Source: Streptacidiphilus carbonis (GTDB taxonomy: Bacteria; Actinomycetota; Actinomycetes; Streptomycetales; Streptomycetaceae). From it: a DNA stretch of 64,000 nt. Below are positions 5,229 through 24,168 of the stretch, piece by piece. Numbering within the stretch: the first letter of the stretch is position 1; each line of letters begins with the position of its first letter. The notes beneath the pieces are model-generated. The model saw only the letters and a program-made list of their open reading frames with translations. It searched no databases and had not been told where the DNA came from. The position numbers were made by a program, and so were the translations under genes. The stretch is from assembly GCF_000787775.1 (NCBI RefSeq), contig NZ_BBPM01000042.1, forward strand, positions 1 through 64,000, written 5' to 3'.

Positions 5229-5646
5229 GAAAGTGTTCCTCTGCGACGCCTGCGAGGTGAGCTGTCGGGTTCGGGCACGAGGATGCCCGGTCGCGGTCGT
5301 GAGTGGAGCGACTTCACCCCTAGCCGGACGGCACCTGATGACGGCGCGTGCACCGGCGACTACCTGGGTCCCCCGCTCCTGCCCGTGGACTGTTTCGAGG
5401 TCCTGCCACCGGGTGGACAGGATTCGGCGTCCCGGCGGAGAGGTCCGCGTGCTGCGGAGCCTGCAGGCTAAGCAGGCCTTTCGCCCGGAGGCAATGGAAT
5501 GTGCCCGGGTTCACATAGGCCTTATACCGGACATCCCCTACCCAGCCGCTTCCCGGTGCGCGGAATGCCGGCGGCCACAGCCCGGTTGTCGTCCCTGCCC
5601 CTGCAGTTTTTCGTACGACCGCTTTGACCGATCCAGGAGTCCGCAC
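5229..5646. other. Divergent intergenic region between GH16 and OYE genes
   Basis: 418 nt that should hold the promoters of both flanking genes. AGGAG at 5635-5639 is the OYE ribosome binding site. I see no convincing -35/-10 pair or long palindrome and no additional gene. Confidence 0.5.
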
Positions 5647-8767: not shown

Positions 8768-8821
8768 GGTGCAACCACACGGAACCGGCGCGGCACTGGT
8801 CCTGGCGCCGCCACCGCTGAC

Positions 8822-8827
8822 TAGCGT
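8822..8827 (+). promoter_or_regulatory. -10 element TAGCGT, leaderless start of the surface protein gene
   Basis: TAGCGT ends 7 nt before the GTG start at 8835, the spacing of a leaderless transcript, and no Shine-Dalgarno is present. The wider string CTAGCGTCCAT recurs at 10335-10345 before the next gene. Confidence 0.5.
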
Positions 8828-8834
8828 CCATCGG

Positions 8835-10244
8835 GTGATCATCTCCCTCCGCTTCCCCGTGAGCCTGTGCGTGACCGCTCTCGCCGGCGGCCTGCTCCTC
8901 GGCCCGTCCGCCGCTGCTCTGACGCCCCCTCAGTTCACCGCCGCCGTGACCACGCGTGCCACCGGCTACAGCGGGAATCCGGTCGCAGGCAGCAAGGGCT
9001 TCGGAGTGGTGGTCCAGAAGAACGCGGTGCTGGGCAGCACCGAGTCCGAGGGCCCGATCGCGATCGGCGGCAGTCTGCGCTTCGGCCCCGGCTACAACGT
9101 CGCCGTCCACGACGCCGGGAGCTACACCGCCCCGGGCGACAGCAGGCCGACCGCGCTCCTGGTCGACGGCTCGGTCGACTTCGCGGGCAGTTCCCCGAGC
9201 GGCGTCCTCAAAGTGCTCTCCGGCGGTTACCTCAAGCTGGGTTCCCTGGCCGGGACCGACGTCCTGAACACCGACAGCAACGGGGCCTCGGTCAACACCC
9301 AGGCGGTGGTCTCCGGCGCCGCGTACAACAGCGTGCCGCGCATCGAGCTCAACAGCCAGCAGCCCCTCGCGTCGGTCGGCCCGCACCCCGGCCTGATCGA
9401 CTTCGACTCGCTGTTCGCCGCCTACCGTGAGCGCTCCACCGCGATGGCCGGCTGCGAAACCAACGTCACCCTGCTGGACGGCAACGAAGTGCCGCTGCCG
9501 GACCAGAAGGTGATCCCGGCCGGCTCCAACATCAAGATCCATCTCTCCCGCGCGCACACCAACGTCCTGCACCTGACCGGGGCGATGCTCAACCACATCT
9601 CCGAGTTCAACTTCCTGGACCAGCCCAGCAGCAGCGGACCGCTGCTGATCGTGGTGGACACCACCGGCACCGGCGGCACCTTCACCTGGCACACGCCCAA
9701 TATGGCCGGCCTGCAGAAGAGCGCGATCGGCTCCCTGCTGTGGGACTTCCCCGACGCCACCGACATCACCGTGGCCTCCGGCGACAGCGTCGAGGGGACG
9801 ATCTATGCGCCACGGGCCAAGCTGACCGACCTCGCCCCCTCCAACATCGAGGGCGACATCATCGTCCGGGAGCTGCTGCACGGACCGCTGGAGGCCTCCG
9901 GATCCGCCGTCAACGCGGGCGAACTGCACTACTTCCCCTTCACCGCCACGATCGACTGCGCCGGCAACGACACCGACGGCTCCACCACACCGGGCCCGGT
10001 CCCCTCGCGCACCCCCGTCTCCCCCACCAGCGGCCAGAGCACCCCGGGCGTCCCCGACAACGACCAGGACGACCACGGCGACCAGGACCTCACCGGCGGC
10101 ACCGGTCAGCACCGCCCTGACCTGGCCGCGACCGGCACCGGCAGCACCCAGCTGACCACTGCCCTCGCGGCCGTCGCCCTGTCCGGCCTCGGCGCCACCG
10201 CCCTGGTCCTGGTCCGCCGCAGCCGCAGGGGTCGGCACGAGTGA
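8835..10244 (+). CDS. Sortase-anchored choice-of-anchor A family surface protein
   Basis: 469 aa from the GTG at 8835; the open frame continues upstream only through the tandem repeat, so that extension is rejected. A signal peptide (about 1-27) is followed by a body of about 380 residues matching the choice-of-anchor A type of secreted beta-rich protein: GSTESEGPIAIGGSL near the start and VEGTIYAPRAKLTDL further on. An Asp/Gly-rich linker precedes LAATG at 430-434, a hydrophobic helix and an Arg-rich tail, the LAxTG sortase signal. It is predicted to be cell-wall bound. The molecular role is unknown; members are often adhesin-like or matrix-like. No sortase gene lies in the window. Confidence 0.82.
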   Translation: MIISLRFPVSLCVTALAGGLLLGPSAAALTPPQFTAAVTTRATGYSGNPVAGSKGFGVVVQKNAVLGSTESEGPIAIGGSLRFGPGYNVAVHDAGSYTAPGDSRPTALLVDGSVDFAGSSPSGVLKVLSGGYLKLGSLAGTDVLNTDSNGASVNTQAVVSGAAYNSVPRIELNSQQPLASVGPHPGLIDFDSLFAAYRERSTAMAGCETNVTLLDGNEVPLPDQKVIPAGSNIKIHLSRAHTNVLHLTGAMLNHISEFNFLDQPSSSGPLLIVVDTTGTGGTFTWHTPNMAGLQKSAIGSLLWDFPDATDITVASGDSVEGTIYAPRAKLTDLAPSNIEGDIIVRELLHGPLEASGSAVNAGELHYFPFTATIDCAGNDTDGSTTPGPVPSRTPVSPTSGQSTPGVPDNDQDDHGDQDLTGGTGQHRPDLAATGTGSTQLTTALAAVALSGLGATALVLVRRSRRGRHE

Positions 10245-10335
10245 CCGCCGGCCGTTCATCCGGGTGAACCAGAACGCTCATTGAGTGTGCATCAAGTGGT
10301 TACTGACGGGTATTCCCTTTCGATCCACGAGGCTC

Positions 10336-10341
10336 TAGCGT
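10336..10341 (+). promoter_or_regulatory. -10 element TAGCGT upstream of the phosphodiesterase gene
   Basis: Within CTAGCGTCCAT, identical over 11 bp to the element before the choice-of-anchor A gene. Transcription would start near 10348 and give a leader of about 47 nt that contains GGAG at 10386-10389. Confidence 0.45.
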
Positions 10342-10394
10342 CCATGTCGTCCTGAACTTGTCCAGACAAGATGACGATGACGTTTGGAGTCCCG

Positions 10395-11438
10395 ATGATG
10401 TCCAGCATCTCCGCGCGCAGGCTCGGCCACGCCCTGACCGCCACCCTCACCGTGGCCGGCCTGGCCGCCGCGCCCGCGCACGCGGCCACCACGGCGACCG
10501 CTCCGGCCTCGCTGTCGGTGTTCGCCTGGAACGTGGACCTGGGCACCGCCGTGGTCGACACGGTCGAGAAGGAGAACGCCGCCGGACGCACCCCCACCGT
10601 CGAAGCGGTGATCCGCAAGCACTCCGCCGACGTGGTCATCCTCGACGAGGCCTTCAACAACACCTCCGACGGCCAGATCCCGGCCGCCCTCGCCGACCTC
10701 TACCCGTACGCGACGCCGGTGGTCGGCAAGACCTGCTCGGGCGGCGGCTGGACCGGCATCAGCGGCGACTGCTCCAACTCGCCGTTCGTCATCAACGGCG
10801 GAACGCTGATCCTGTCCAAGTACCCGATCCTGGCCCAGTACGCGCACATCTTCTCCAACTCGACCTCCGGCACCTGGGACTACAACGCCGACAAGGGCGC
10901 GGACCTGGTCGAGCTCAATGTGAACGGCGCCCACACCTGGGTGGTCGGCACCCACCTGCAGGCCGACCAGTCGGGCACCTCGACCGCCACCACCCAGCAG
11001 ACCCGACTGGCCCAGCTCGGCGAGATCCGGACCTGGACCGACCAGATCGCCGGCACCTCCGCACCCGTGCTGATCGGCGGCGACCTTAACGTCGAGTACT
11101 ACGGCGGCGCCTCCCGCGGCGACTACGCCAACGCCCAGACCGCCGTCGGCGGCGTCCTCGGCTCCCCGGCGCTGGACCCCTCCCAGAGCCTGCGCACCAT
11201 GGACTGCCCGGTCTCCTCCTGGTGCCAGTACATGTCCGGCGTCGAGTCCTTCTCCAGCACCTACCAGGACGACCTGGACTACCTCGGCTACCTCCAGGAC
11301 GGCGCCCGCCCGGTCCCGACCGCACTGCCCACCGTCCAGGTCGACTTCGACCCGCAGTCCGGCTGGACCACCGGCCAGCTGGACACCAACGCCCCCAGCG
11401 ACCACTACCCCGTCCAGGCCACCTACCAGCTCCCCTGA
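10395..11438 (+). CDS. Secreted sphingomyelinase-like endonuclease/exonuclease/phosphatase-fold phosphodiesterase
   Basis: 347 aa. ATG at 10395 (or 10398) is preferred because GGAG lies just upstream at 10386-10389; an in-frame ATG at 10371 would place this site inside the gene. A signal peptide (about 1-31) precedes an EEP fold. Visible motifs are FAWNVD at the start, DVVILDEAFNN with the metal-binding acidic residue, GGTLILSKYPI, VVGTHLQAD, GGDLNVEYY, and SDHYPV with the catalytic His near the C terminus. This set is characteristic of bacterial neutral sphingomyelinases (phospholipase C type), which cut sphingomyelin to ceramide and phosphocholine. The substrate here is inferred; another phosphodiester is possible. 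Confidence 0.83.
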   Translation: MMSSISARRLGHALTATLTVAGLAAAPAHAATTATAPASLSVFAWNVDLGTAVVDTVEKENAAGRTPTVEAVIRKHSADVVILDEAFNNTSDGQIPAALADLYPYATPVVGKTCSGGGWTGISGDCSNSPFVINGGTLILSKYPILAQYAHIFSNSTSGTWDYNADKGADLVELNVNGAHTWVVGTHLQADQSGTSTATTQQTRLAQLGEIRTWTDQIAGTSAPVLIGGDLNVEYYGGASRGDYANAQTAVGGVLGSPALDPSQSLRTMDCPVSSWCQYMSGVESFSSTYQDDLDYLGYLQDGARPVPTALPTVQVDFDPQSGWTTGQLDTNAPSDHYPVQATYQLP

Positions 11439-11526
11439 GCCGACCGGCGGTGGGAGCGAGCAGCGCCGAGAGCTCCCCGCACCCACCGCCGCCCAGGCCC
11501 GCAACGAACCGCCCCGGTCACCGCAC

Positions 11527-11532
11527 TACCGT
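11527..11532 (+). promoter_or_regulatory. -10 element TACCGT, leaderless start of the methyltransferase gene
   Basis: TACCGT followed by 8 nt and the ATG at 11541. No Shine-Dalgarno sequence is visible, so a leaderless mRNA is likely. Confidence 0.5.
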
Positions 11533-11540
11533 GTCCGACC

Positions 11541-12191
11541 ATGAACCCCGAAGCCTGGCTCGCCGAGACCCGCGCCTCCTACGACACCGTCGCCACCAGC
11601 TACGCGGACCAGGTGCGCCACCTCCTCGACCAGACACCCTACGAACGCGCGGTCCTGGCAGTCTTCGCCGAACTGGCCCGGACGACGGGCACGGGACCGG
11701 TCGCGGACGTGGGCTGCGGACCCGGGAGGATCACGGCGCACCTGAGCGGACTGGGCCTGGACGCCTTCGGCATCGACCTCTCACCCGCGATGGTGGAGGT
11801 CGCCCGGCGTGAACACCCCGGCCTGCGATTCGAGGTCGGCTCCATGACGGAGCTCGACCTCCCCGACGCCTCGCTGGCCGGCCTGGCCGCCTGGTACTCG
11901 CTGATCCATGTCCCCGACGCCGGGATCACCCCGGTCCTCGCCCACTTCCGACGCGTCCTTCGCCCCGGCGGCCCCCTCCTGATCAGCTTCCACGTCGGCG
12001 ACGAGTCGCAGCTGAAGACCCAGGGCTACGGCGGCCACCCGATGCACGTCCACGTCCACCGCCGCCGACCCGACCAACTCGCCACCTGGCTCAAGGAGGC
12101 CGGTTTCACCGTCGAGGCCCAGCTGACGCTCACCTCGGCCGAGAGCAGGCGCGGAGGAATCCTCTTCGCACGCCGCCGGCCCGACGCCTAG
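11541..12191 (+). CDS. Class I SAM-dependent methyltransferase
   Basis: 216 aa, normal for a single-domain enzyme. The AdoMet-binding motif VADVGCGPGRI is at about residues 54-64, followed by the acidic ribose-binding loop FGIDLSPAMVEVAR and the post-II segment GPLLISFHVGDE. The fold and AdoMet use are secure; the methyl acceptor is not, since such UbiE/Tam-like proteins act on many small molecules. It is monocistronic and ends in a 4-bp overlap with the end of the convergent gene 12188-12802. Confidence 0.85.
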   Translation: MNPEAWLAETRASYDTVATSYADQVRHLLDQTPYERAVLAVFAELARTTGTGPVADVGCGPGRITAHLSGLGLDAFGIDLSPAMVEVARREHPGLRFEVGSMTELDLPDASLAGLAAWYSLIHVPDAGITPVLAHFRRVLRPGGPLLISFHVGDESQLKTQGYGGHPMHVHVHRRRPDQLATWLKEAGFTVEAQLTLTSAESRRGGILFARRRPDA

Positions 12192-12802
12192 CGAGGTCCA
12201 GCACCGCTGGACAGTGCAGGCCGCAGCTCCGCGCGGAGCCTGTTCGTCGTCTCGACGGGCAGGCCAAGGTTCGCATGGCGGAGCTCTGCCGAGTAGGTCG
12301 CGATGAGGGCGAGGTCCCGCAGCTGGCGGCGAAGCTCCGCGACGAGCGCCTCGTCGAGGTCGGGAACGTCTCCCCCCTCTTCGGCGAGTCGCTGCAAGGC
12401 CTGGTCCACGGCGTCGACCGCTCGGCTGCTCACCACGCCGGCAAGGTCCCGGCAGCCGAACAGGTACGCCATCGCGGCATACAGGGTCGCCGCCGCGGCG
12501 TCCTCGTCCGCGTCGTTGGGCCCGTTCTGGCCGTCGTTGTGGCAGTACTCGCTCAGCAGGTATTCGCCAATACCGCGCTTCACCTCGTCGAATGCGGTCG
12601 AGTCACCGAGGACGCCCTCCCATACGGCATTCAGCAAGGGACGCAGACCGAGCGTGAACGGCGCCCGCTCGTCCTCGGGCAAGGCCTCGTGCCCGCTCAT
12701 CAGCCGCTCCGCGACACAGGCGGCGAAAACACAGCGTTCGTCCCACGAAGCGACTTCCAGGCGCTCCGCCACCGTCGTCGCCAGGTCCTGCCAGCTGCCC
12801 AC
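12188..12802 (-). CDS. Helical cytoplasmic protein, possibly DUF416-like
   Basis: 204 aa from the GTG at 12802. The frame stays open further upstream but that part is Arg/Gly/Pro-rich and unlike the rest. The protein is nearly all helix, with segments WDERCVFAACVAERL, LRPLLNAVWEGVLG and AATLYAAMAYLFGC that resemble the YjaG/DUF416 arrangement, followed by an acidic C-terminal half. No signal peptide, membrane span or catalytic motif is visible. The start is uncertain because the upstream purine run is poor. Function unknown. The convergent methyltransferase shares 4 bp at the stop codons. Confidence 0.6.
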   Translation of the reverse strand: MGSWQDLATTVAERLEVASWDERCVFAACVAERLMSGHEALPEDERAPFTLGLRPLLNAVWEGVLGDSTAFDEVKRGIGEYLLSEYCHNDGQNGPNDADEDAAAATLYAAMAYLFGCRDLAGVVSSRAVDAVDQALQRLAEEGGDVPDLDEALVAELRRQLRDLALIATYSAELRHANLGLPVETTNRLRAELRPALSSGAGPR

Positions 12803-12901
12803 CGAAGCCCACCCCAGGGTCGCGAGACCGACGCGCTCGCGCCGGTGACGGCGATCATCGCACCCACCGCCGCAAGGCCGCCCCCGTCGGGGACCGCCGG
12901 C

Positions 12902-12929
12902 CTGCGGCCCCCCGGGTGGGGGGCCGCAG
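12902..12929 (-). terminator. Perfect 12-bp hairpin after the cupredoxin-like gene
   Basis: CTGCGGCCCCCC (12902-12913) and GGGGGGCCGCAG (12918-12929) pair perfectly around a 4-nt loop. It lies 20 bp beyond the stop of the minus-strand gene 12949-13902. No U-run. Confidence 0.7.
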
Positions 12930-12948
12930 TACGCCGGGCCGCTGGGTG

Positions 12949-13902
12949 TCAGCTGAGCCGGATCACCTTGTGCATGCCGAGGAAGGCGTGCGGGATGCCC
13001 GACTTGTCGTCCGGGATGAAGCACAGCAGGGCGTAGTGACCGCCCCGCGGGTCGAAGTGCAGCAGTTCGATGCGGCCCGGCGACATGGCGGCGGCGCCGC
13101 GCTGGGCATTCTCGGCGAAGGGGTTGGGCGCGGTCTTGCCCTGAGCGGTGAGGTCGAAGTACTTCTGCAGGGTGGCGTCGGTGACACCGTTGTTCACTCG
13201 CGAGAACAGTGCCTCGTGGATCTCGTCCGCCCGGTTGCGGATCAGGATGGTGGAGTCGGTGTCGATGTGCCGGGGCGCGATGAAACGCGGGCCGTTCTTG
13301 GTCTCCACCTGGGTGATCGTCGCGCCGAAGGCGGGGGTGTCGGTGTCGAAGGTGCCGTGGACCAGCAGCTTGTGGGCCGTCACCTTGCCACCGGGCACGA
13401 AGAGCTGGTTGAAGTCGAAGAAGTAGTACGTGCCGGCCGTCAGCGGAATGCTCACCGACACGAAGGTGGACGGCTCCACCGCCGCACCGCCGACGACCGT
13501 GGCGTCCCGGGCGGCAGCACGGATCCCGGCCGCGGAGGTCGACGGAGTCTGGCTCGTCGCCTGGCGGAGATCGGCGAGCAGGCGGCTGAAGCTGACGCCC
13601 TTGTGCAGTTGCACGCCCTGCAGCGTGTGTCCCTGCGCGTCATTGGTGGTGGTCCGGAAATCGATGAACCCGGCATGGACCCGCGAGGGCAGCGAGAAGC
13701 CGCTGCTGCTCATGTGCACCTTCACCAGCCGCGGGCCCAGGTCCGCCGTCCACCCCGCAGGCGGCCCGTCGGCGAAGGCGGCAGAAGCCGGCCCGGCGGC
13801 GAGCGCGCCCGCGGCGAGCCCGACGGCGAGAGCCCGGGGCAGGCGACGCCCGTTACGGAGAGCGCGCAGACGTCTGCCTCTGAGCAGGGTGGAGAGTGGC
13901 AT
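12949..13902 (-). CDS. Secreted cupredoxin-like protein of unknown function
   Basis: 317 aa. The ATG at 13902 has AAAGGAA 8 nt upstream; a longer frame to 14106 lacks a site. An Arg-rich n-region and hydrophobic core (about 15-45) form a signal peptide. The mature protein reads as two beta-sandwich-like halves. The last 30 residues, with Cys, His and Met in the order C-x10-H-x4-M (LLCFIPD...IPHAFLGMHKV), resemble the ligand loop of cupredoxins, though the Cys-His spacing is longer than in classical blue copper proteins. Copper binding is therefore only suggested. Confidence 0.6.
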   Translation of the reverse strand: MPLSTLLRGRRLRALRNGRRLPRALAVGLAAGALAAGPASAAFADGPPAGWTADLGPRLVKVHMSSSGFSLPSRVHAGFIDFRTTTNDAQGHTLQGVQLHKGVSFSRLLADLRQATSQTPSTSAAGIRAAARDATVVGGAAVEPSTFVSVSIPLTAGTYYFFDFNQLFVPGGKVTAHKLLVHGTFDTDTPAFGATITQVETKNGPRFIAPRHIDTDSTILIRNRADEIHEALFSRVNNGVTDATLQKYFDLTAQGKTAPNPFAENAQRGAAAMSPGRIELLHFDPRGGHYALLCFIPDDKSGIPHAFLGMHKVIRLS

Positions 13903-14169
13903 GAAGGGTGTTCCTTTCGAGTAGCTGACCTGACGAGACGTCATCTGCCTTGCATGACGCCTGCGGAGGCGTACCACCGGAGCTACCCTCGCAAATCCTC
14001 CGAGCGGGTGAATCAACCCCACGAGCAGTGAACTGATATGACTAATCCCACCTTCCCGATCGGCCTCGGCAGTCCCGGTGGCTCCGGCCGCGCGGGCCAG
14101 GCGCATCCCGTGCCGCGGCGGGGGAAGTCGGCAGGTCAGCGCGGGGGCAGGTCTCGCGCACGCCGTTGG

Positions 14170-14943
14170 TCAAGCTTCCGGCGGCCGACGGTTGTACTTC
14201 TCGATGGTGGCCTTCGAGGTGGAGGAGTCCTGGAACACCAGGGACCAGGGGCCCGTGTTGACGTCGAACTCCTTCCCGAAGCCGATCCACTTACCTGTCA
14301 TGCGTCGGCCGGTCGGTTCAGCCAGGAGCTGAAGGGCACCGTGGTAGCGCGCCCCGGCGTAGTACCCGTCCGTTGCCGTCTGCTCGACCCAGGTGCCGGT
14401 CACCACGTTGCGGTCGATCGTGAGGTCCAGTGACAGGGGTGAATCCGGGTTCAGTGACGCGTCCGGAAGCGAGCGGCCGGTGAGGTGGTTGCCGTGCTGC
14501 ACCAGGACCACATAGTGGCTGCCGCGGAAGGTGTCCCCGCGCCCCGAAGAGAAGTACTCGTACGTGCTCAACCACACCCCGGAGTAGGTGAGTGCACCGG
14601 CCGGCACGGAGTGTGCCACCGGCGCGCCAGTGTCACCGCCGCCCTCCAGGTCGTGCCCACCGTGGCCGTCCTCGCGGACCCGGGCCATCACCAGAGGCAT
14701 CCGGAATCCCAGCGCTTCCACGGACAACCCGGTGAGCGCCATCAGGGCACGGGCGTAGACGGGACGCGGGTAGGCGACCACGCCGGCTTCCCAGCGCTGG
14801 ACGAGGCGCTTGCTGGCGTCATTCGGCTCCCCCGACTCCCTGCCCACGCGCCGCAGTTCGCGGGCCAGGTCGTCCTGACTCAGTCGTAGTCCTACGCGGA
14901 CTGCCCGGAGGGTGTCGTTGGGTGTTGCCGTGACAGTTGCCAT
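14170..14943 (-). CDS. XRE-type DNA-binding protein with a beta-rich C-terminal domain
   Basis: 257 aa from the ATG at 14943. Residues about 8-75 form an Xre/Cro helix-turn-helix (LRLSQDDLARELRR and KRLVQRWEAG). Residues about 115-257 form a beta-rich domain with GVWLSTYEYFSSGR, VVTGTWVEQTATDGYYAGARYHGALQL and MTGKWIGFGKEF, which I take to be a ligand-sensing or lipocalin-like domain; that is inference. It resembles regulators that are common beside small hypothetical genes in streptomycetes. TACCGT 6 nt before the start indicates a leaderless mRNA. It is divergent from the gene at 15101. Confidence 0.72.
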   Translation of the reverse strand: MATVTATPNDTLRAVRVGLRLSQDDLARELRRVGRESGEPNDASKRLVQRWEAGVVAYPRPVYARALMALTGLSVEALGFRMPLVMARVREDGHGGHDLEGGGDTGAPVAHSVPAGALTYSGVWLSTYEYFSSGRGDTFRGSHYVVLVQHGNHLTGRSLPDASLNPDSPLSLDLTIDRNVVTGTWVEQTATDGYYAGARYHGALQLLAEPTGRRMTGKWIGFGKEFDVNTGPWSLVFQDSSTSKATIEKYNRRPPEA

Positions 14944-14949
14944 GCGATC

Positions 14950-14955
14950 ACGGTA
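14950..14955 (-). promoter_or_regulatory. -10 element TACCGT of the Xre gene
   Basis: Read on the minus strand, TACCGT stands 6 nt before the ATG at 14943, fitting a leaderless transcript. A GAGGAG further upstream is too far (about 14 nt) to act as a Shine-Dalgarno. Confidence 0.45.
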
Positions 14956-15100
14956 GCTCCTCGCACCTGCCCAATGACACCGGTTTGACGCCCCGTCCGA
15001 CGCCTCACCGACACCAGCACGGACGTCGCGGTTCGACGCCATGGCGCAAGACGCTTGGACCATGGCCGGAAGGCGCCGCATGGCTTGAGGGAGTGTGGAG

Positions 15101-15553
15101 ATGAACGGGTGGACAGGGACGGCGGTGCCGCAGGAGCACGCGGAGAGGGACATGGCCGTCCACCCCACGGGGATACCACATGCGATGTTCGAGCGGAGCC
15201 TGGGAGTATGGCGGGCGCTGGCCGACGACGGCACGCTCATCACGGGCACGAACGGCACCCCGCTGGGTTTCCGATGCCTCGACGCGGCCCAGGCCGCTGC
15301 CCGTGACCACAACCGAGTACGCACATCTGCGACCCCCGAACTTCCCTCTGTCGGCTCCTACGTCGTAGATATCCGATCCGGCCGCATCGCCGTCCTCCGC
15401 GACCTGATCGAGGGCACGCTGTACCTCCGCCCCGGTAACGGCGGCCGCGAATGGGAGGCCATGCCCTCGCACGTTCGGCTGGCAACGCCCCGTGAGTCAC
15501 TGATGCACAAGGTTCAGGACCTCAACGCGGAGAGCCGCCGTCGGACGGACTGA
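15101..15553 (+). CDS. Small conserved-type protein of unknown function
   Basis: 150 aa. ATG at 15101 is preferred over the GTG at 15095 because TTGAGGGA ends about 8 nt before it. The N-terminal half is soluble and unremarkable. The C-terminal half begins GSYVVDIRSGRIAVLRD and ends LRPGNGGREWEA with a charged tail, a pattern I recognise from small streptomycete proteins that accompany Xre-type regulators. No signal peptide, membrane span or catalytic motif. It is divergent from the Xre gene, so the two may form a regulator-partner pair like the BldB/AbaA-type sets; that comparison is speculative. Confidence 0.6.
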   Translation: MNGWTGTAVPQEHAERDMAVHPTGIPHAMFERSLGVWRALADDGTLITGTNGTPLGFRCLDAAQAAARDHNRVRTSATPELPSVGSYVVDIRSGRIAVLRDLIEGTLYLRPGNGGREWEAMPSHVRLATPRESLMHKVQDLNAESRRRTD

Positions 15554-15619
15554 AGCTTCCTTCCTGGCCTCGTCAGTGGATCGGAGTCGGAACATCGGGT
15601 GGCGTCATCAGAGCCAGGA

Positions 15620-16168
15620 TCAGCCGAGGCAGATCGTGTTCAGAAAGTCCTCGAAGGCCTGGTTCGTGCGGTCGGCGTCGCCGGTTGCGTCGAGGTCCAT
15701 GAGCAGGCCCCGGATTACGGCGAGTACGACAGTGGCCAGCTCGGGACGGCCGAGGGTGCGCATACCCTCCTCCAGCGGGGCGAGCCAGTCGGTGGTCGCG
15801 ATGCGTCGGAAGCCTGGCCACAGCGGTTCGCCGGCGGTGTCGTGCAGTCGGCCGAACATGCGCAGGTAGGGCTGTCCGTGCGGGCCGGTCATGGTGGACC
15901 AGGCGTGACTCAGGGTTGCCGGATAGGGCTCTTCGGGCCGGACTCGCAGGAGGTCGGTGAAGCCCTCGACCTGGCGTTGTCGGGCTCGTTCGAGCACGTC
16001 GCGGAGGAGGCCGTCGCGGGTGCCGAAGTGGTAGATCAGCATGCGTTTGGAAGCACCCGTGGCGGTGGCGAGCGGGCCGAGCCGGTCGGGGAGCCCGTGC
16101 TCAAGAGCGTAGTCGGTGCACACGTCGAGAAGCCGCTGCCTGATCTGTGGCTCCGGCCGCCTACCCAT
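15620..16168 (-). CDS. TetR family transcriptional regulator
   Basis: 182 aa from the ATG at 16168. The N-terminal helix-turn-helix covers about residues 5-50 (RQRLLDVCTDYAL, then TGASKRMLIYHFGTRDGLL), with the YHF signature of TetR proteins. The remaining helices would form the ligand-binding and dimer domain. It is divergent from an alpha/beta hydrolase gene at 16246, with a short palindrome between them, so it probably represses that gene and itself. The ligand is unknown. Confidence 0.85.
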   Translation of the reverse strand: MGRRPEPQIRQRLLDVCTDYALEHGLPDRLGPLATATGASKRMLIYHFGTRDGLLRDVLERARQRQVEGFTDLLRVRPEEPYPATLSHAWSTMTGPHGQPYLRMFGRLHDTAGEPLWPGFRRIATTDWLAPLEEGMRTLGRPELATVVLAVIRGLLMDLDATGDADRTNQAFEDFLNTICLG

Positions 16169-16201
16169 GCTCGCCACCGTTTCACGTAACAACCGGTACG
16201 T

Positions 16202-16217
16202 CTACCGTTCTCGGTAG
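16202..16217. promoter_or_regulatory. Candidate TetR operator
   Basis: CTACCG-TTCT-CGGTAG, a perfect 6-bp inverted repeat with 4-bp centre, in the 77-bp gap between the divergent tetR and hydrolase genes. Confidence 0.5.
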
Positions 16218-16245
16218 CCGACCGGAACAAGACCAGGAGCTCGCG

Positions 16246-16953
16246 ATGAGGGTCGTTTTCGTGCATGGAGCATGCGTCAAGGACGGATCGTGGTGGTGGC
16301 ACCGCACCGCCGGACTGCTGGCCGAGCGGGGCGTCGCCAGCGAGGCTCCCGCCCTGCCGAGTTGCGGCGAGACGGGTGGGCCGACGGGCGCGCACGGCCC
16401 GGGATTGACAGAGGACGTGGCCGCTGTCCGTGAGGTACTGATGGCGAGCGACGAGCCGACCGTCGTGGTCGCCCACAGCTATGGCGGTATCGTCACCGCG
16501 GAGGCGGTAGCCGGCGTCGCGGCGGTCCGCCATCTGCTGCTCGTGTCCAGCTACCTGCCCGAGGTCGGCCAGAGCCTCTCCTCGTTCGGAGCCCCTGAGC
16601 CCGCCCCCTTCCTCCATCTCGATCCCGAAGGCGGCACGTTCACCGTCCGGCCGGACGCCCTGGCCGGTACGTTCCTCCAGGACTGCGGTCCCGAGATCCA
16701 GCGGCAGGCCATGGACAGGACGGCCTGGCAGAGCCTGGCGGTCCTCCAGCAGCCGGTGAAGTCCGCGGCCTGGCAGCACCTCCCCACGACGTACCTCGTC
16801 TGCGCACAGGACCGGGGCACGCCCGCCGCGCTGCAACGCGAGTTCGCCGACCGGGCGGACCGCGTTGTGGAACTGGACGCCGGCCACCATCCGTTCCTGT
16901 CCCGACCGGCCGCCGTCAGCGACCTGGTAATGAGGGGGCTTGGTACTGCGTAG
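16246..16953 (+). CDS. Alpha/beta hydrolase (esterase-like)
   Basis: 235 aa. ATG at 16246 with AGGAG about 6 nt upstream; the open frame upstream overlaps the promoter and is rejected. The N-terminal strand and oxyanion loop VVFVHGACVKDGSWWWH, the nucleophile elbow AHSYGG with Ser78, and the C-terminal GHHPFLSRP with the catalytic His are those of the EstC/salicylate-esterase-like alpha/beta hydrolases of about 230-240 aa. It is probably a cytoplasmic carboxylesterase; the substrate is unknown. Its stop codon overlaps the 3' end of the first tRNA of the opposite-strand array by 3 nt. Confidence 0.85.
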   Translation: MRVVFVHGACVKDGSWWWHRTAGLLAERGVASEAPALPSCGETGGPTGAHGPGLTEDVAAVREVLMASDEPTVVVAHSYGGIVTAEAVAGVAAVRHLLLVSSYLPEVGQSLSSFGAPEPAPFLHLDPEGGTFTVRPDALAGTFLQDCGPEIQRQAMDRTAWQSLAVLQQPVKSAAWQHLPTTYLVCAQDRGTPAALQREFADRADRVVELDAGHHPFLSRPAAVSDLVMRGLGTA

Positions 16954-17023
16954 CGTCGGTGCGATTCGAACGCACACTGGACCGGTCCTGAACCGGCTCC
17001 CTCTGCCGTTGGGGTACGACGCC
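16951..17023 (-). tRNA. tRNA-like gene, anticodon CAG (Leu), but with a short class I variable loop
   Basis: Acceptor stem GGCGTCG/CGACGCT pairs at all seven positions (one G-U). The anticodon stem GCCGG/CCGGT encloses TTCAGGA, anticodon CAG. The T arm GTGCG-TTCGAAT-CGCAC is perfect. The D stem has only three pairs. The discriminator is A, as LeuRS needs, but the variable loop is 5 nt, whereas bacterial tRNA-Leu has a long variable arm. CCA is not encoded. The 3' end overlaps the hydrolase stop codon. Confidence 0.6.
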
Positions 17024-17025
17024 GG

Positions 17026-17096
17026 GGTGATCGACGGGAATCGAACCCGTGCAACCGCGACCACAGCGCGGTGCTCTACCATTGAGCTACGACCAC
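17026..17096 (-). tRNA. tRNA-His (GTG)
   Basis: The cloverleaf is complete: acceptor GTGGTCG/CGATCAC, D stem GCTC/GAGC, anticodon arm CCGCG-CTGTGGT-CGCGG with anticodon GTG, and T arm ACGGG-TTCGATT-CCCGT. Discriminator C73 is the histidine identity base. The base at -1 is T, so the usual G-1 is not encoded, and CCA is not encoded. It lies 2 nt from each neighbour in the array. Confidence 0.8.
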
Positions 17097-17098
17097 AG

Positions 17099-17176
17099 TG
17101 CGCCGCCAGGGAATCGAACCCCGCTAGCCCGAAGGCGCAGGCTTTACAGGCCCGCATGTGTCCCAGCACTCAACGC
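17099..17176 (-). tRNA. tRNA-Tyr (GTA) with an irregular 5' half
   Basis: Anticodon arm CGGGC-CTGTAAA-GCCTG gives anticodon GTA. A long variable arm (GCC-TTCG-GGC stem) fits tyrosine. The T arm is CGGGG-TTCGATT-CCCTG and the discriminator is A. The acceptor GCGTTGA/GCGGCGC has two G-U pairs and one mismatch. The D region is shortened, with only GTG/CAC able to pair, and U8 is not clear. It may be decayed or of phage type. Confidence 0.55.
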
Positions 17177-17177
17177 T

Positions 17178-17255
17178 TGGTGGCACCGGTGGGATTCGAA
17201 CCCACGACATCCAGGTTATGAGCCTGGCGAGCTGACCGACCTGCTCTACGGTGCT
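17178..17255 (-). tRNA. tRNA-Met (CAT) with encoded CCA and an A1-C72 mismatch
   Basis: D stem GAGC/GCTC, anticodon arm CCAGG-CTCATAA-CCTGG, T arm GTGGG-TTCGAAT-CCCAC, acceptor AGCACCG/CGGTGCC, then A73 and an encoded CCA. Positions 2-7 of the acceptor pair perfectly, but 1-72 is A-C. An unpaired 1-72 is a formylation determinant of initiators, yet the anticodon stem lacks the three consecutive G-C pairs of an initiator. It is the first gene of the array on its strand. Confidence 0.8.
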
Positions 17256-17453
17256 GATGAAAAGCCTACGGACCAGCGCCGTTGCGGGCCACGGATTTTC
17301 TGCCGATCCACCCTGACCGGCTGCAGCACCATTGCCGCCGATCGGATGAACTGCTCCCGCACGCCTGAGGCCTAGGGACTCTGCCCCCCGTGCGCGGGGT
17401 GATAGTGGTTGCTGGCCGGCGTGGAAAACGCCATGCCGCGCGAACGGCGAGGC
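17256..17453. other. Intergenic stretch upstream of the tRNA array
   Basis: 198 nt with no gene that I can support. It should contain the promoter of the minus-strand tRNA array. A small GC hairpin (CCCC-GTGCGC-GGGG) lies near 17386-17400. No integrase remnant or tRNA fragment was seen. Confidence 0.4.
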
Positions 17454-18257
17454 TCAGCAGGCCCAGGGCAGTCGCACTGCTTCGAGTTCACCGTCGGCCA
17501 GAAGGGCCTCGATCAGGAAGCCGGGCCCGGCGACCTTGGTGGCCCACAGGTCGTAATCGGTGCACACGACCCAGGAACGGTCCTCGGCCCACAGGTTGGA
17601 CGGGCTGAAGTCGATCTCCGGATGGTCGTACAACTCCTCGGCGTCGCCGAGGACTCCTGCTTGTACGTGCAGGTTGTCGAAGTCGTGTGCTCCGAGCATC
17701 AGCGGACTGTAGTAGGCCAGGCAGCGGGTGTCCGCTCCCGCAGGGCTGTGCGCACACAGCAGCCGTACCAGCCGGTTCCAGGACTCGCGGTCCAGACTGC
17801 CCTCGGTCGGCGGAGCGATCGAGACGGGCCAGCTGCCGTTGATCCGGACGGAGGGGAAGGAACGAAAGCAGGGCAGGCGGCCCTCAGGGGCCACCGGATC
17901 GCCGCTGCGCTCCACCAGCTCGGCCCAGCGCAGCCGCCGCCACCCCTGGCCGGGGTGATCCGCGCGACCCAGTCTGCCCCCGGTGACCGTCGTCTCGGCA
18001 GTCAGATCGATGTCACCGACGATCTCCATGGCCGCGGTCCCGTCCGCGACCATGGCTCGATGAACGTCGTCGTACGAGAGGCCGGCAGGGGCGCGGTCGT
18101 GTTCGTACATGGCGTTCAGCACCCAGGCCGCATCCGGCAGCGGGGGCGGCATGAAGCCTGTGAGGCCGTCATCCTCGGCGATTTCCCGCAGCCAGTCGGT
18201 GGCACTGGACGGCGCGAGCGACCACCTGTCCGAGAACGACATCGACGGCTGATGCAT
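17454..18257 (-). CDS. Uncharacterised cytoplasmic protein
   Basis: 267 aa from the ATG at 18257; an ATG at 18242 is also possible. The N-terminal part is Pro/Ala-rich. The C-terminal 100 residues contain the clear pattern SPLMLGAHDFDNLHVQAGVLGDAEELYDHPEIDFSPSNL, split here by my reading into a helix and an acidic loop, then WVVCTDYDLWATKV and a final ELEAVRLPW. It is rich in Trp and acidic residues, without signal peptide or membrane span. No family is recognised. It is transcribed toward the tRNA array. Confidence 0.6.
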   Translation of the reverse strand: MHQPSMSFSDRWSLAPSSATDWLREIAEDDGLTGFMPPPLPDAAWVLNAMYEHDRAPAGLSYDDVHRAMVADGTAAMEIVGDIDLTAETTVTGGRLGRADHPGQGWRRLRWAELVERSGDPVAPEGRLPCFRSFPSVRINGSWPVSIAPPTEGSLDRESWNRLVRLLCAHSPAGADTRCLAYYSPLMLGAHDFDNLHVQAGVLGDAEELYDHPEIDFSPSNLWAEDRSWVVCTDYDLWATKVAGPGFLIEALLADGELEAVRLPWAC

Positions 18258-18633
18258 CCCGCCAGGATCGCAGGCTCGGGCGCACAACTCACGCAGCGCA
18301 GGCGAGATCGAACATGACAGGGCCACACGATCGAGTGGCTCGCAGGGTCAGAGACCAGGGGCCCTACGCACAGAAGGTGATCACTGAGTCGTCAGGGAAC
18401 AATTTCAACGGCGTCTCCGAGGCCGGCTATGCCCCCGACGAGGAGCGGAACGCGAACCAGCCGGTCGAGGCCGGCCCGGCCCCGGCCGCGGCCCCGCCCC
18501 CGGCCCCGGCCCCGGCCCCCCCGGGCGACCGAGTTGCGGCAGCCCGGTGCGCTGTGATGCTGAGGGGAGCAGGCGGAGCAGGGCGACGCGGTGCCGGTAC
18601 AGCCGGCAGTTCGGAGACGGAAGGGTGGCCGAG
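18258..18633. other. Divergent gap with an extreme GC simple-sequence tract
   Basis: 376 nt between divergent genes. 18471-18528 is a run of GGCCCC/CCGGCC-type hexamers with almost no A or T. No gene is supported here. The promoter of the SpoIIE-type phosphatase should lie between the tract and 18634. Confidence 0.6.
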
Positions 18634-20793
18634 ATGTCCGGGAGACCGCCGGCGCCGACCGACACGGCGCTGCTGGACGCCCTTTTCCACGAAGCCCTGT
18701 CGGGACTGTTCGTCCTGGACGACGAGCTGCGCGTGGTCCACTTCAACCACTCCGCCCGCGGCATCCGGGGCCTGCCCGACGACGACGTCCGCGGCCACCT
18801 GATCGCCGAGGTCGCCCCGGAGCTGATCACCGATGAGGTGACGGATCTCGCCCGTGCGGTGCTCGCCTCCGGCACGGCCGTCCGCGGTCGGCTGGTGCGC
18901 GGCTTCCCGCCGACCGACCCGACCCGCGAGATGGTCGCCTCGGTGTCGTTGTTCCGCCTGAGCGACACCGAGGGACAGGTGCTGGGACTGGCAGCCGTGG
19001 TCGAGGACGTCACCGAGCGCGAGCAGGCGCTGGAGCGGCTGGCCACGCTGCACGAGGGCCACCGTGCCATCGGCTCCACCCTGGACCCCGCCGCCACCGC
19101 GGACGAGCTGGCCGTCGTCGCCGTGCCGAGGTTCGCCGACACCGCGGTGGTGGACCTGCGCGACGACGCGCTCCGCGGCGAGGAGCTGCGGCCGGGACCG
19201 GTGGACGCCGCCCTGCCGTTGCGCCGGGTGGCGTACCGGTCCGTCGACGCGGCGCGGGCCGGCAGCGTCGAGCTCGGGGACCTGACCACGGTTCCGTTCC
19301 CGACGCCGTTCACCCAGAGCCTGGAGGACCTGCGCCCCCGGCTGCTCACCGGGCTGGACGGCCGGGCCGGTGCCGATCAGTGGCCCTACCTCCGCTCCCC
19401 CGGCGCCGGCCAGGTCGACGACGCGACGGTGGACTCGCTGATCGTGGCTCCGCTGGCCGCGCACGGCGTCCTGCTCGGGCTGGTCGGCTTCTACCGCGGC
19501 CCGCACCGGGAGCCGTTCACCGGCCTGGACCTGGAGCTGGCCGGGGAGCTGGCGGTCCGGGCGGCGATGAGCGTCGAGCGGGCCCACAGCTTCATCCGGC
19601 AGGCCTCCATCGCGACCGCGCTCCAGCGCCACCTGCTGCCCTCCCCGCCACCGCCGCTCGCCGCACTCAGCACCGCCCACCTCTACCTGCCCGCCGGCAC
19701 CGGCGGCGCCTGGTACGACCTGGTCCCGCTGTCGGGGGCGCGGGTGGCGCTGGTGGTGGGCGAGGTCGGCGGCCACGGCATCGGCACCGCCGCGGCGATG
19801 GGGCAGCTGCGCACGGCCGTGCAGACCCTGGCCGCCCAGGACCTGGCTCCGGACGAGCTGCTGGGCCGACTCGACGAGACCATGCAGCGCTTGGCCCGGG
19901 ACAGCGGCGGCGAGCCGGACACGGCGTCCTGCCTCTACCTGGTCTACGACCCGGTCACCGGCAGCTGCGACGGTGCCAGCGCCGGACACCGCACCCCGCT
20001 GGCACTGGGCCCGGACGGCGCCGAGCTCCCGCTCGACGTCCCGATCGGCGCGAGGCTGGGGTCCGGGGAGGCAGGCTACCCCTCGGCCCGTCTGCAACTG
20101 CCCCCCGGCACCCTCCTCGCCCTGGCCACGGACGGCCTGCGCACGGACGGCCTGCGCGCCGGCGCCGACAGAGGTGCGGGCGGAGACGGCCAGAACGGAA
20201 ACGGGCGGAACGGAGAGGGGCAGAACGGAGAGGGGCAGAACGGAGACGGGCGGAACGGAAACAGTCACCGCCTCGCCCAGGTGCTGGCCCAGCCCGAGCA
20301 CGACCTGCAGGCCCTGTGCGACGCCGCCGCCTACGCCCTGGCCACCGACCGCCCCGAGCAGGACGCCATCCTGCTGCTGGCCCGCACCAGCGTGCTGGAC
20401 GCCGACCAGGTCGCCCACTGGACCCTCCCGGAGGACAAGTCCATCGTCTCCACCGCAAGGGATCTGACCCGTCATCAACTCACCGCCTGGGGCCTGCACG
20501 ATCTCGTCGACACGACCGAACTGATCGTCAGCGAGCTGGTCACCAACGCCATCCGCTACGGACAGGGGGCGGTGACCCTGCGCCTGATCCGGGCCGGGAC
20601 CCTCTCCTGCGAGGTCTCCGACGCCAGCAGCACCGCCCCGCACATGCGGCTGGCGGCCGACGGGGACGAGGGCGGCCGCGGCCTCTTCCTGGTCATGCAC
20701 TGCAGCAGCCGCTGGGGCACCCGGTACAACCCCCGCGGCAAGACCATCTGGTCCGAGCAGCCCCTGCCCCCGGGCGACCCCGAACCAGCCTGA
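18634..20793 (+). CDS. PAS-GAF-SpoIIE phosphatase-HATPase signalling protein
   Basis: 719 aa. ATG at 18634, with GAAGGG about 9 nt upstream. A PAS domain (about 10-125) and a GAF domain (about 145-310) precede a PP2C/SpoIIE-type domain (about 330-570) and an RsbW-like ATPase (about 590-710) with N box ELVTNAIRYG and G box GGRGLFLV. Such proteins act in partner-switching control of alternative sigma factors: the ATPase phosphorylates or binds anti-anti-sigma proteins and the phosphatase reverses this. Two metal-site positions are altered: the usual GGDWYD reads GGAWYD (Ala359) and the usual GDVxGHG reads GEVGGHG (Glu377), so phosphatase activity may be weak. Residues 517-541 are five copies of a 5-residue Gly/Asn-rich repeat. 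Confidence 0.88.
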   Translation: MSGRPPAPTDTALLDALFHEALSGLFVLDDELRVVHFNHSARGIRGLPDDDVRGHLIAEVAPELITDEVTDLARAVLASGTAVRGRLVRGFPPTDPTREMVASVSLFRLSDTEGQVLGLAAVVEDVTEREQALERLATLHEGHRAIGSTLDPAATADELAVVAVPRFADTAVVDLRDDALRGEELRPGPVDAALPLRRVAYRSVDAARAGSVELGDLTTVPFPTPFTQSLEDLRPRLLTGLDGRAGADQWPYLRSPGAGQVDDATVDSLIVAPLAAHGVLLGLVGFYRGPHREPFTGLDLELAGELAVRAAMSVERAHSFIRQASIATALQRHLLPSPPPPLAALSTAHLYLPAGTGGAWYDLVPLSGARVALVVGEVGGHGIGTAAAMGQLRTAVQTLAAQDLAPDELLGRLDETMQRLARDSGGEPDTASCLYLVYDPVTGSCDGASAGHRTPLALGPDGAELPLDVPIGARLGSGEAGYPSARLQLPPGTLLALATDGLRTDGLRAGADRGAGGDGQNGNGRNGEGQNGEGQNGDGRNGNSHRLAQVLAQPEHDLQALCDAAAYALATDRPEQDAILLLARTSVLDADQVAHWTLPEDKSIVSTARDLTRHQLTAWGLHDLVDTTELIVSELVTNAIRYGQGAVTLRLIRAGTLSCEVSDASSTAPHMRLAADGDEGGRGLFLVMHCSSRWGTRYNPRGKTIWSEQPLPPGDPEPA
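20182..20256 (+). repeat. 15-bp in-frame tandem repeat in the SpoIIE-type gene, five copies
   Basis: Five consecutive 15-bp units encode G-(D/N/E)-G-(Q/R)-N. Units 3 and 4 are identical. They insert in a loop of the phosphatase domain just after the TDGL segment. Copy number could vary between strains. Confidence 0.9.
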
Positions 20794-22839: not shown

Positions 22840-24168
22840 TCAGGGCTTGACCGCGGCCAGGCGCACGGTGATGCGCGTCCCGTGGGCGGCGGTGCTGCCC
22901 GGCGCGGGTGACTGGGCGCAGACATGCGCGGGCGCGAATCCACTAACCGGACAGCCGCCGTGCACCACCGCTCCGACCTGGAGTCCGGCCAGTCGGGCAC
23001 TGGTCCGGGCCTCCAGCAGGGACTTCCCGGACAGGTTCGGGGTGACGCCGTTCGGCTTGGCCCCACCCGCCGCCGCCCCGAGCGCGAGCGCCGCCGCGAC
23101 GGCGACGGCGAGCACAGCGCCGGACACGGCCACCGCTCGGCGGCGCGATGTCGGTACCGGGCGCCGGGGCGCCTGCTGAACCGTCGACGAGAACGGCTCG
23201 CGGACCGTGGGCGGCAGCGGCTCCCGGACCGTCGCTTCATCACGCGGGGTGCGCGCACCGAGCGCCGAGGTCCCGGGCACAGCCGCGGCAGCGGCACCGG
23301 AGCCCAGTGCCGCCTCCACGGCCGCGCGCATCTCCGCGGCCGTCCGGAAGCGGTTCTCCCTGTCGCGCGCCAGCGCTCTCAGTACCAGCCGCTCGCAGTC
23401 CCCGCTCAGCGCGGAAGCGTGCGACGACGGGGGCGGCGGGTCCTCCCCGAGCCGCCGCCAGGCCACCTCCAGCGGGGTGCCGCCGGCGAACGGAGTACGG
23501 CCGGTGAGCAGCTCGTAGAGCAGGCAGCCGGTGGAGTAGAGGTCCGAGCGGGCGTCCACCGGCAGGCCCTCGGCCTGTTCCGGCGAGAGGTAGTCCGCGG
23601 TGCCGATGATCATCGAGGCCTGGGTCAGGGCGGTGGCGTCGCCGTTCATCGGCCTGGCGATGCCGAAGTCCATCACCTTGGTCCGGCCGTCGCCGGTGAG
23701 CATCACATTCGCCGGTTTGATGTCCCGGTGCACGATCCCGCGGGCATGCGCGTAGTCGAGGGCGTCCAGGATGCCCGCGGCCAGCTCCAGCGCCTCCCGT
23801 TCGGGCAGCGGGGCGCTCTCCCTGAGGAGTTCGGCCAGGGTGGAGCCGTGGACGTGCTCCATCACCAGGTACGGGAGCAGCATCCCGTCGACGGTGTCCT
23901 CGCCGCAGTCGTACACCGCGACCACGCCGGGGTGGTTCAGCGATGCTGCCGAGAGCGCCTCGCGCCGGAACCTGGCCAGGTACGTGGGGTCGACGGCGAT
24001 GTCCGGCCGCAGCAGTTTCACCGCGACCGGCCGGTCCAGGCGCAGGTCACGGGCCAGATGCACTTCCGCCATACCACCGCGTCCGAGCAGCCCGGAGACC
24101 AGGTAGCGCCCGCCCAGCACATGCTCACCCACCGGATCCGCACCCCTCTGCGCTCGCTCCGCCGACAC
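22840..24168 (-). CDS. PknB-type serine/threonine kinase with one PASTA domain
   Basis: 442 aa. The N-terminal kinase domain (about 20-290) has the Gly loop LGRGGMAEV, the VAVKLL lysine (K51), the catalytic loop [14 protein letters not shown] and the activation-segment SPEQAEG. A linker with basic and Pro-rich sequence leads to a membrane helix (about 345-370) and a single extracellular PASTA-like domain (about 375-440) with two Cys. PASTA domains bind muropeptides or lipid II, so this is a sensor kinase of cell-wall state. Classical PknB has three or four PASTA units; one is short. GTG at 24168 is the longest start; GTG codons a little downstream are possible. Confidence 0.9.

What the first reader, a model, noticed from the sequence alone, without database searches (positions are those of the whole stretch)
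16951..17255. Compact array of four atypical tRNA genes on one strand
Four cloverleaf-like genes (Met, Tyr, His, Leu anticodons) are packed into 305 bp with 1-2 nt between them, all minus strand. Only the Met gene encodes CCA. The CAG (Leu) gene has a class I variable loop, contrary to bacterial tRNA-Leu. The Met gene has an A1-C72 mismatch without initiator-type anticodon stem. The His gene lacks an encoded G-1. The Tyr gene has a shortened D region. tRNA arrays of this style occur on phages and conjugative elements of actinobacteria; no phage or integrase genes are seen here. They could be a mobile-element relic or supply specialised tRNAs.
Basis: partly seen in the sequence, partly recalled or inferred. 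Interest (0 to 1): 0.65.

Follow-up and report, generated by a model that had tools for sequence, protein, structure and literature searches.

The report
Phage-type tRNA cluster in a bacterium
Four tightly packed spare tRNA genes in this Streptacidiphilus chromosome are real, and all their odd features are shared with tRNAs carried by actinobacterial phages, so the cluster is best read as a tRNA operon that came from a phage; its tyrosine tRNA has an unusual, conserved compact shape.

Summary
In detail: Met, Tyr, His and Leu tRNA genes lie at 16951-17255 (-), 1-2 nt apart. The genome (genus Streptacidiphilus) has its own normal Met, Tyr, His and Leu-CAG genes, so these are spare copies. They belong to a family of arrays with a recurring gene order (Met-Tyr-His-Leu(CAG)-Leu(GAG)-Ser-Ser-Trp-Gln...). 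Relatives occur in 11 of 14 congeners and in Kitasatospora, at unrelated sites; two lie about 1.2 kb from phage terminase and portal genes, and one lies in an IMG/VR viral contig. Class I tRNA-Leu is not foreign to the host: most sampled Actinomycetes match its class I Leu-CAA. The Tyr gene is the most unusual part: 1-nt linker, 3-bp D stem, 6-bp anticodon stem, long variable arm; all 253 pair cells intact and 9 compensated pairs in 11 sequences, with relatives in Streptomyces phages and cluster C mycobacteriophages. Best reading: a (pro)phage-derived tRNA operon, probably once used to keep translation going when host tRNAs are cleaved. The origin is well supported; the function is inferred. 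Present-day expression is untested.

The parts
17287..17292 (-). -35-like hexamer GTGGCC (A-run just upstream)
   Evidence: Custom scan: promoter-like pair scoring >=11 upstream of 18/18 related tRNA genes or arrays versus 2.7% of random windows. The scoring was chosen after seeing the sequences; the stricter E. coli-type scan found none.
17263..17268 (-). -10-like hexamer TAGGCT, 18-nt spacer, 7 nt before the first base of tRNA-Met
   Evidence: In six arrays that begin with Met the gap to the tRNA is 5-7 nt, so transcription may start at or next to the mature 5' end (inference).
17178..17255 (-). tRNA-Met (CAU): A1-C72 mismatch, G2:C71, C3:G70, A73, A11:U24, CCA encoded
   Evidence: ARAGORN, Rfam 62.0 bits; same acceptor end and same anticodon stem in mycobacteriophage Myrna gp146
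17099..17176 (-). compact tRNA-Tyr (GUA): 1-nt linker, 3-bp D stem, 6-bp anticodon stem, long variable arm
   Evidence: Covariation in 11 sequences, model R1
17026..17096 (-). tRNA-His (GUG) with U at -1 and C73, no encoded G-1
   Evidence: ARAGORN, Rfam 67.9 bits; U at -1 also in phages Blueeyedbeauty, Wakanda, Myrna
16951..17023 (-). class I tRNA-Leu (CAG)
   Evidence: ARAGORN, Rfam 46.6 bits; 92-100% identical relatives in 13 other genomes; 6 compensated pairs
11439..18520 (.). species-variable island that contains the array
   Evidence: Flanks 8813-11438 and 18521-20772 are collinear in G004 (82-85% identity) with about 8 kb of unrelated DNA and no tRNA between them; similar in G010; lower third-position GC in five genes at 12949-18326
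16240..16953 (+). alpha/beta hydrolase gene, convergent with the array; its stop codon lies on the last bases of tRNA-Leu
   Evidence: Pfam PF12697, sequence

Best explanation
The four genes are a shortened version of a phage-type accessory tRNA operon that entered Streptacidiphilus chromosomes with (pro)phages or DNA carried by them, and survives here in a species-variable island without the rest of the phage. It probably makes one precursor from a promoter just before tRNA-Met, cut into four tRNAs that duplicate host tRNAs in anticodon but differ in body. In the phage the most likely use is to keep translation going when host tRNAs are cleaved by defence nucleases or toxins. In this chromosome the operon looks structurally intact, so it is either still useful (for example as a buffer against tRNA-cleaving attack) or recently acquired and not yet decayed. 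Shown: the genes, their structure, their relatives and the phage link. Inferred: transcription, charging, the anti-nuclease role and the reason for retention. The confidence given is for the phage-derived origin; for the anti-nuclease role I would put about 0.45.
For: Array relatives with a recurring gene order in 11/14 congeners and in genus g14 (named members: Kitasatospora humi and Streptomyces sp. NRRL S-350), without shared flanking genes in most cases. Two arrays lie about 1.2 kb from terminase and portal genes; one lies in IMG/VR contig L087; three have a phrog_1128 gene nearby, a product name that also occurs within phage Wakanda's tRNA region. Class I Leu in phages Wakanda, CELFI, Vorvolakos, JPandJE, LeBron and in 27/27 Leu genes of viral contigs found by the compact-Tyr motif. 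Compact Tyr in Vorvolakos, JPandJE, HyRo, LinStu. His with U at -1 in three phages. Met of Myrna with the same A1-C72, A11:U24 and anticodon stem. Compensatory changes show that the tRNA folds were kept. The host has its own tRNAs for all four anticodons. Published precedent: phage tRNA-Tyr rescues phage from retron-Eco7 (PMC11555353); phage tRNAs predicted nuclease-insensitive (PMC10264068).
Against: No phage gene is recognisable beside the array in the window, and most chromosomal relatives also lack one. No RNA data. Only two of four anticodon loops (Leu, His) differ from the host's, so an anticodon-loop escape model fits only partly. The His gene may charge poorly without G-1. The three identical Leu-CAG copies at unrelated sites could also mean spread by a vehicle not recognised here.
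Confidence: 0.78

Rival explanations
1. Neutral relic: leftovers of a decayed prophage with no present function, on the way to loss.
For: Related arrays vary in length and include broken members: Leu-CAG in L069 and L070, Leu-GAG remnant in L052. Functions duplicate the host's own. No phage genes remain.
Against: All four window genes keep their stems, with compensatory changes among relatives for Tyr and Leu. A Leu-CAG copy is present in 11/14 congeners at 93-100% identity. A promoter-like pair sits before the arrays.
Confidence: 0.35
2. Codon supply: the array boosts decoding of codons that phage or island genes use heavily.
For: For cluster BF Streptomyces phages, codon usage of the capsid gene is reported to fit the combined phage and host tRNA pool better (PMC9753666).
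Against: The array reads CUG (68% of Leu codons), CAC (91%) and UAC (94%), already the host's commonest codons, with host tRNAs present.
Confidence: 0.12
3. tRNA-dependent lysogeny: the phage carried a tRNA to replace a host tRNA gene broken by its integration.
For: Shown for other actinophages, including one that integrates in tRNA-Leu-CAA (PMC10865867).
Against: The host's own genes for all four anticodons are present. No integrase was recognised among the array-adjacent genes scanned in the window. Array members outnumber the single tRNA this would need.
Confidence: 0.05
4. Non-translational use, such as aminoacyl-tRNA donors for natural-product enzymes.
For: Streptomycetaceae make many natural products; one related array (L073) lies near a polyketide synthase.
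Against: No tRNA-using biosynthetic gene was recognised in the ten window genes scanned around the array or in the flanking genes shared between arrays.
Confidence: 0.03

Closest known systems
tRNA array of cluster BF and related Streptomyces phages (Vorvolakos, JPandJE; Beephvirinae)
   Same: Genes mostly 1-4 nt apart; compact tRNA-Tyr; class I tRNA-Leu; Met, Trp, Gln(CUG), Ser(AGA) and Ser(GCU), which also occur in the longer related arrays.
   Different: 15-20 genes in a phage genome, Leu anticodon UAG, different order; four genes on a chromosome here.
Chromosomal and prophage tRNA array units of Mycobacterium (PMC5966550, PMC12803027)
   Same: Dense, redundant with host tRNAs, linked to phages in part, inserted at unrelated sites, tRNA bodies altered.
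   Different: By definition 20 or more genes; the window has 4 and the longest array seen here in a bacterial genome has 10.
tRNA cluster of large Streptomyces phages Wakanda and Blueeyedbeauty (Stanwilliamsviridae)
   Same: Class I tRNA-Leu 81% identical (Wakanda); His with U at -1; Tyr and His genes 1 nt apart in Blueeyedbeauty.
   Different: Normal-length tRNA-Tyr; genes interspersed with coding genes and a tmRNA.
Chromosomal class I tRNA-Leu(CAA) of Actinomycetes
   Same: No long variable arm; shared D-loop and variable-loop letters; A73.
   Different: Single host gene, CAA anticodon, about 72% identical.

Membership tests
tRNA array unit (Tran 2016 definition as quoted in PMC5966550) | 20 or more tRNA genes | tested here: not met
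   4 genes in the window; the longest related array seen in a bacterial genome has 10
tRNA array unit (Tran 2016 definition as quoted in PMC5966550) | at least 2 tRNA genes per kb | tested here: met
   4 genes in 0.305 kb
Phage-derived tRNA operon | closest relatives carried by phages or prophages | tested here: met
   Terminase and portal beside arrays L044 and L072; viral contig L087; isolated phages with the same tRNA forms
Phage-derived tRNA operon | phage genes next to the window array | tested here: not met
   No PHROG match to a phage structural or integration gene among four neighbouring genes
Functional tRNA-Leu | LeuRS determinants known from E. coli: A73, A14, A15-U48, G18G19, A20a | tested here: met
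   Read from the sequence against PMC9976931; charging itself not testable here
Functional bacterial tRNA-His | encoded G-1 opposite C73 | tested here: not met
   U at -1, C73 present; same in three phages
Initiator tRNA | three G-C pairs at 29-31:39-41 | tested here: not met
   AGG:CCU; the 1-72 mismatch, G2:C71, C3:G70, A73 and A11:U24 are present
Anti-tRNase (counter-defence) tRNA | rescues translation or phage growth when host tRNAs are cleaved | not testable with these tools
   Needs an experiment; published for other phages

The most novel reading that the evidence does not exclude
The compact tRNA-Tyr (one nucleotide between acceptor and D stem, 3-bp D stem with a CUGGGA loop, 6-bp anticodon stem, long variable arm) is a distinct, conserved tRNA architecture shared by actinophages and phage-derived arrays, selected because the altered body escapes host enzymes that recognise or cut normal tRNA-Tyr while it is still charged by host TyrRS. 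I found no description of it in the paper searches I made, which cover only the held open-licence library.
Probability: 0.25. Interest if true: 0.7.

Novelty: new variant of a known kind. Interest (0 to 1): 0.45.

Why it matters
Phage tRNA clusters are well known, but PMC6409571 remarks that Streptomyces hosts were supposed not to carry tRNA arrays. Here their Streptacidiphilus and Kitasatospora relatives carry a recurrent, phage-linked set. If the compact Tyr and class I Leu forms are kept because they resist tRNA-cleaving defences, they give a ready comparison of host and phage isoacceptors for testing why phages carry tRNAs. Many of the listed cluster C phage records show no feature at the compact Tyr gene, so current annotation misses it in part.

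Tried and rejected
Plasmid or conjugative origin: no plasmid record covered most of the array, and Tyr alone gave no plasmid match. Empty site by hydrolase synteny: the G010 homologue is an internally deleted gene elsewhere and shows no junction. E. coli-type promoter and terminator scan: nothing found. A search of the own genome with Pfam PF22589 was a wrong accession and says nothing. Two covariation counts failed on string length and were redone (then 85). Misassignment of the class I Leu to another amino acid was considered and dropped after finding a class I Leu-CAA in the host and its class. The viral contigs motif set is not random: contigs were chosen by the Tyr motif, 14 of 44 have fewer than four tRNAs on the fetched stretch, and some motif hits, in contigs with only a Ser(UGA) gene, may be chance.

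Full report
What is there. ARAGORN finds tRNA-Met(CAU), Tyr(GUA), His(GUG) and Leu(CAG) on the minus strand at 16950-17255; Rfam's tRNA model accepts Met, His and Leu but not Tyr. Taking mature ends from relatives, the genes are Met 17178-17255, Tyr 17099-17176, His 17026-17096 and Leu 16951-17023, 1-2 nt apart.

They are spare. The assembly (8.46 Mb, 139 contigs) gave 71 tRNA matches. ARAGORN on fetched stretches shows a class II Leu-CAG (C79), His (C124), normal Tyr (C121) and several CAU genes elsewhere. Array members share about 76-80% of aligned positions with the like host genes.

Who else has it. In 14 genomes of the genus, the window's included, the Leu-CAG gene is present in 11, at 93-100% identity; of 186 other family members sampled, three (all genus g14) have it. 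The arrays have a recurring order, longest in Streptomyces sp. NRRL S-350: Met-Tyr-His-Leu(CAG)-Leu(GAG)-Ser(GCU)-Ser(CGA)-Trp-Gln(CUG)-Leu(CAA). Other arrays lack members or carry Arg, Asn or Ile genes. Flanking proteins are mostly not shared between arrays.

Phage link. Array L044 (G001) and array L072 (Kitasatospora humi) both lie about 1.2 kb from a terminase and a portal gene that the two loci share. The NRRL S-350 array is inside a 73.6-kb IMG/VR contig. A phrog_1128 gene lies near arrays L048, L071 and L072; phage Wakanda has a gene with the same product name within its tRNA region. In the window no phage gene is recognisable near the array.

Each oddity is shared with phages. Class I Leu: Wakanda 81% identical, and short Leu genes in CELFI, Vorvolakos, JPandJE and LeBron. 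In 44 viral contigs picked by the compact-Tyr motif, 30 hold four or more tRNAs and all 27 Leu genes are short. His without G-1: U at -1 in Blueeyedbeauty, Wakanda and Myrna, as in arrays L043, L044 and L071; host His has G-1. Met: Myrna gp146 has the same A1-C72, G2:C71, C3:G70, A11:U24 and anticodon stem. From general knowledge, a 1-72 mismatch with G2:C71 and C3:G70 is what the Met-tRNA formyltransferase reads, so an initiator-derived tRNA is possible; the stem lacks the initiator's three G-C pairs.

Class I Leu is not foreign to the host. This genome's Leu-CAA (C133:36952) is class I, and 159 of 246 sampled Actinomycetes genomes match it; 15 of 15 loci checked have CAA. In E. coli the long arm is not needed for leucine identity (PMC9976931), and the array gene has A73, A14, A15-U48, G18G19 and A20a. 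Six compensated pairs in eight sequences show the fold is kept.

The compact Tyr. In 11 sequences all 253 pair cells are standard pairs and 9 pairs have changes on both sides. The structure was taken from the fold of the window gene; slid controls reach at most 50% paired. It has six acceptor pairs, one nucleotide, a 3-bp D stem with a 6-nt loop, a 6-bp anticodon stem, a 3-bp variable arm and a 5-bp T stem. Model R1 scores Streptomyces phages JPandJE and Vorvolakos at 73.5 and 69.1 bits and mycobacteriophages HyRo and LinStu at 64.9 and 60.9, while the Tyr genes of Myrna, LeBron, Wakanda and Blueeyedbeauty score 25-35. In the family sample 20 of 200 genomes have it, including 10 of the 14 of this genus.

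Setting. Flanks 8813-11438 and 18521-20772 are collinear in G004 with about 8 kb of unrelated DNA and no tRNA between; G010 is similar with wider limits. Five predicted genes around the array at 12949-18326 have third-position GC of 0.82-0.85, against 0.84-0.97 for the other genes of 200 codons or more. So the array lies in a variable island.

Expression. A promoter-like pair lies 7 nt before tRNA-Met; pairs scoring at least 11 occur before all 18 related genes or arrays tested, against 2.7% of random stretches, but the score was set after looking, and the E. coli-type scan found nothing.

Function. The array reads the commonest Leu, His and Tyr codons, which argues against codon supply. [quoted passage not shown] Here Leu and His differ from the host in the anticodon loop; Tyr and Met do not. 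The anti-nuclease role is therefore an inference, and a neutral relic remains possible.

Verdict. A known kind of thing, a phage-linked accessory tRNA operon, too short to be a 'tRNA array unit' by the published count, with an unusual tRNA-Tyr that deserves study.

Noticed in passing
window 5232-5401 (-): c-di-AMP riboswitch (RF00379, 55.6 bits), just upstream of the 402-aa ORF at 4020-5228 (-).
   Followed up: no
G000 C133:36952-37026; L101: The host's own tRNA-Leu(CAA) is class I, and homologues are common in Actinomycetes.
   Followed up: yes
L069, L070, L052: Degenerate array members: broken Leu-CAG in G004 C58 and G146 C62, and a deleted Leu-GAG in L052.
   Followed up: partly
L173 2371-2459, L180 2384-2471: ARAGORN reports a 'tRNA-???' with four-letter anticodon (agct) about 0.8-0.9 kb downstream of the compact-Tyr match in two congeners.
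   Followed up: no
phage records such as HyRo NC_028869.1 91126-91186: No annotated feature under the compact-Tyr match in many of the listed cluster C mycobacteriophage records.
   Followed up: partly
window 16951-16953: The stop codon of the convergent alpha/beta hydrolase gene lies on the last three bases of tRNA-Leu.
   Followed up: no
window 18547-20793 and 22840-24168: SpoIIE-type phosphatase with PAS/GAF and HATPase domains, and a serine/threonine kinase with a PASTA domain, next to the variable island.
   Followed up: no
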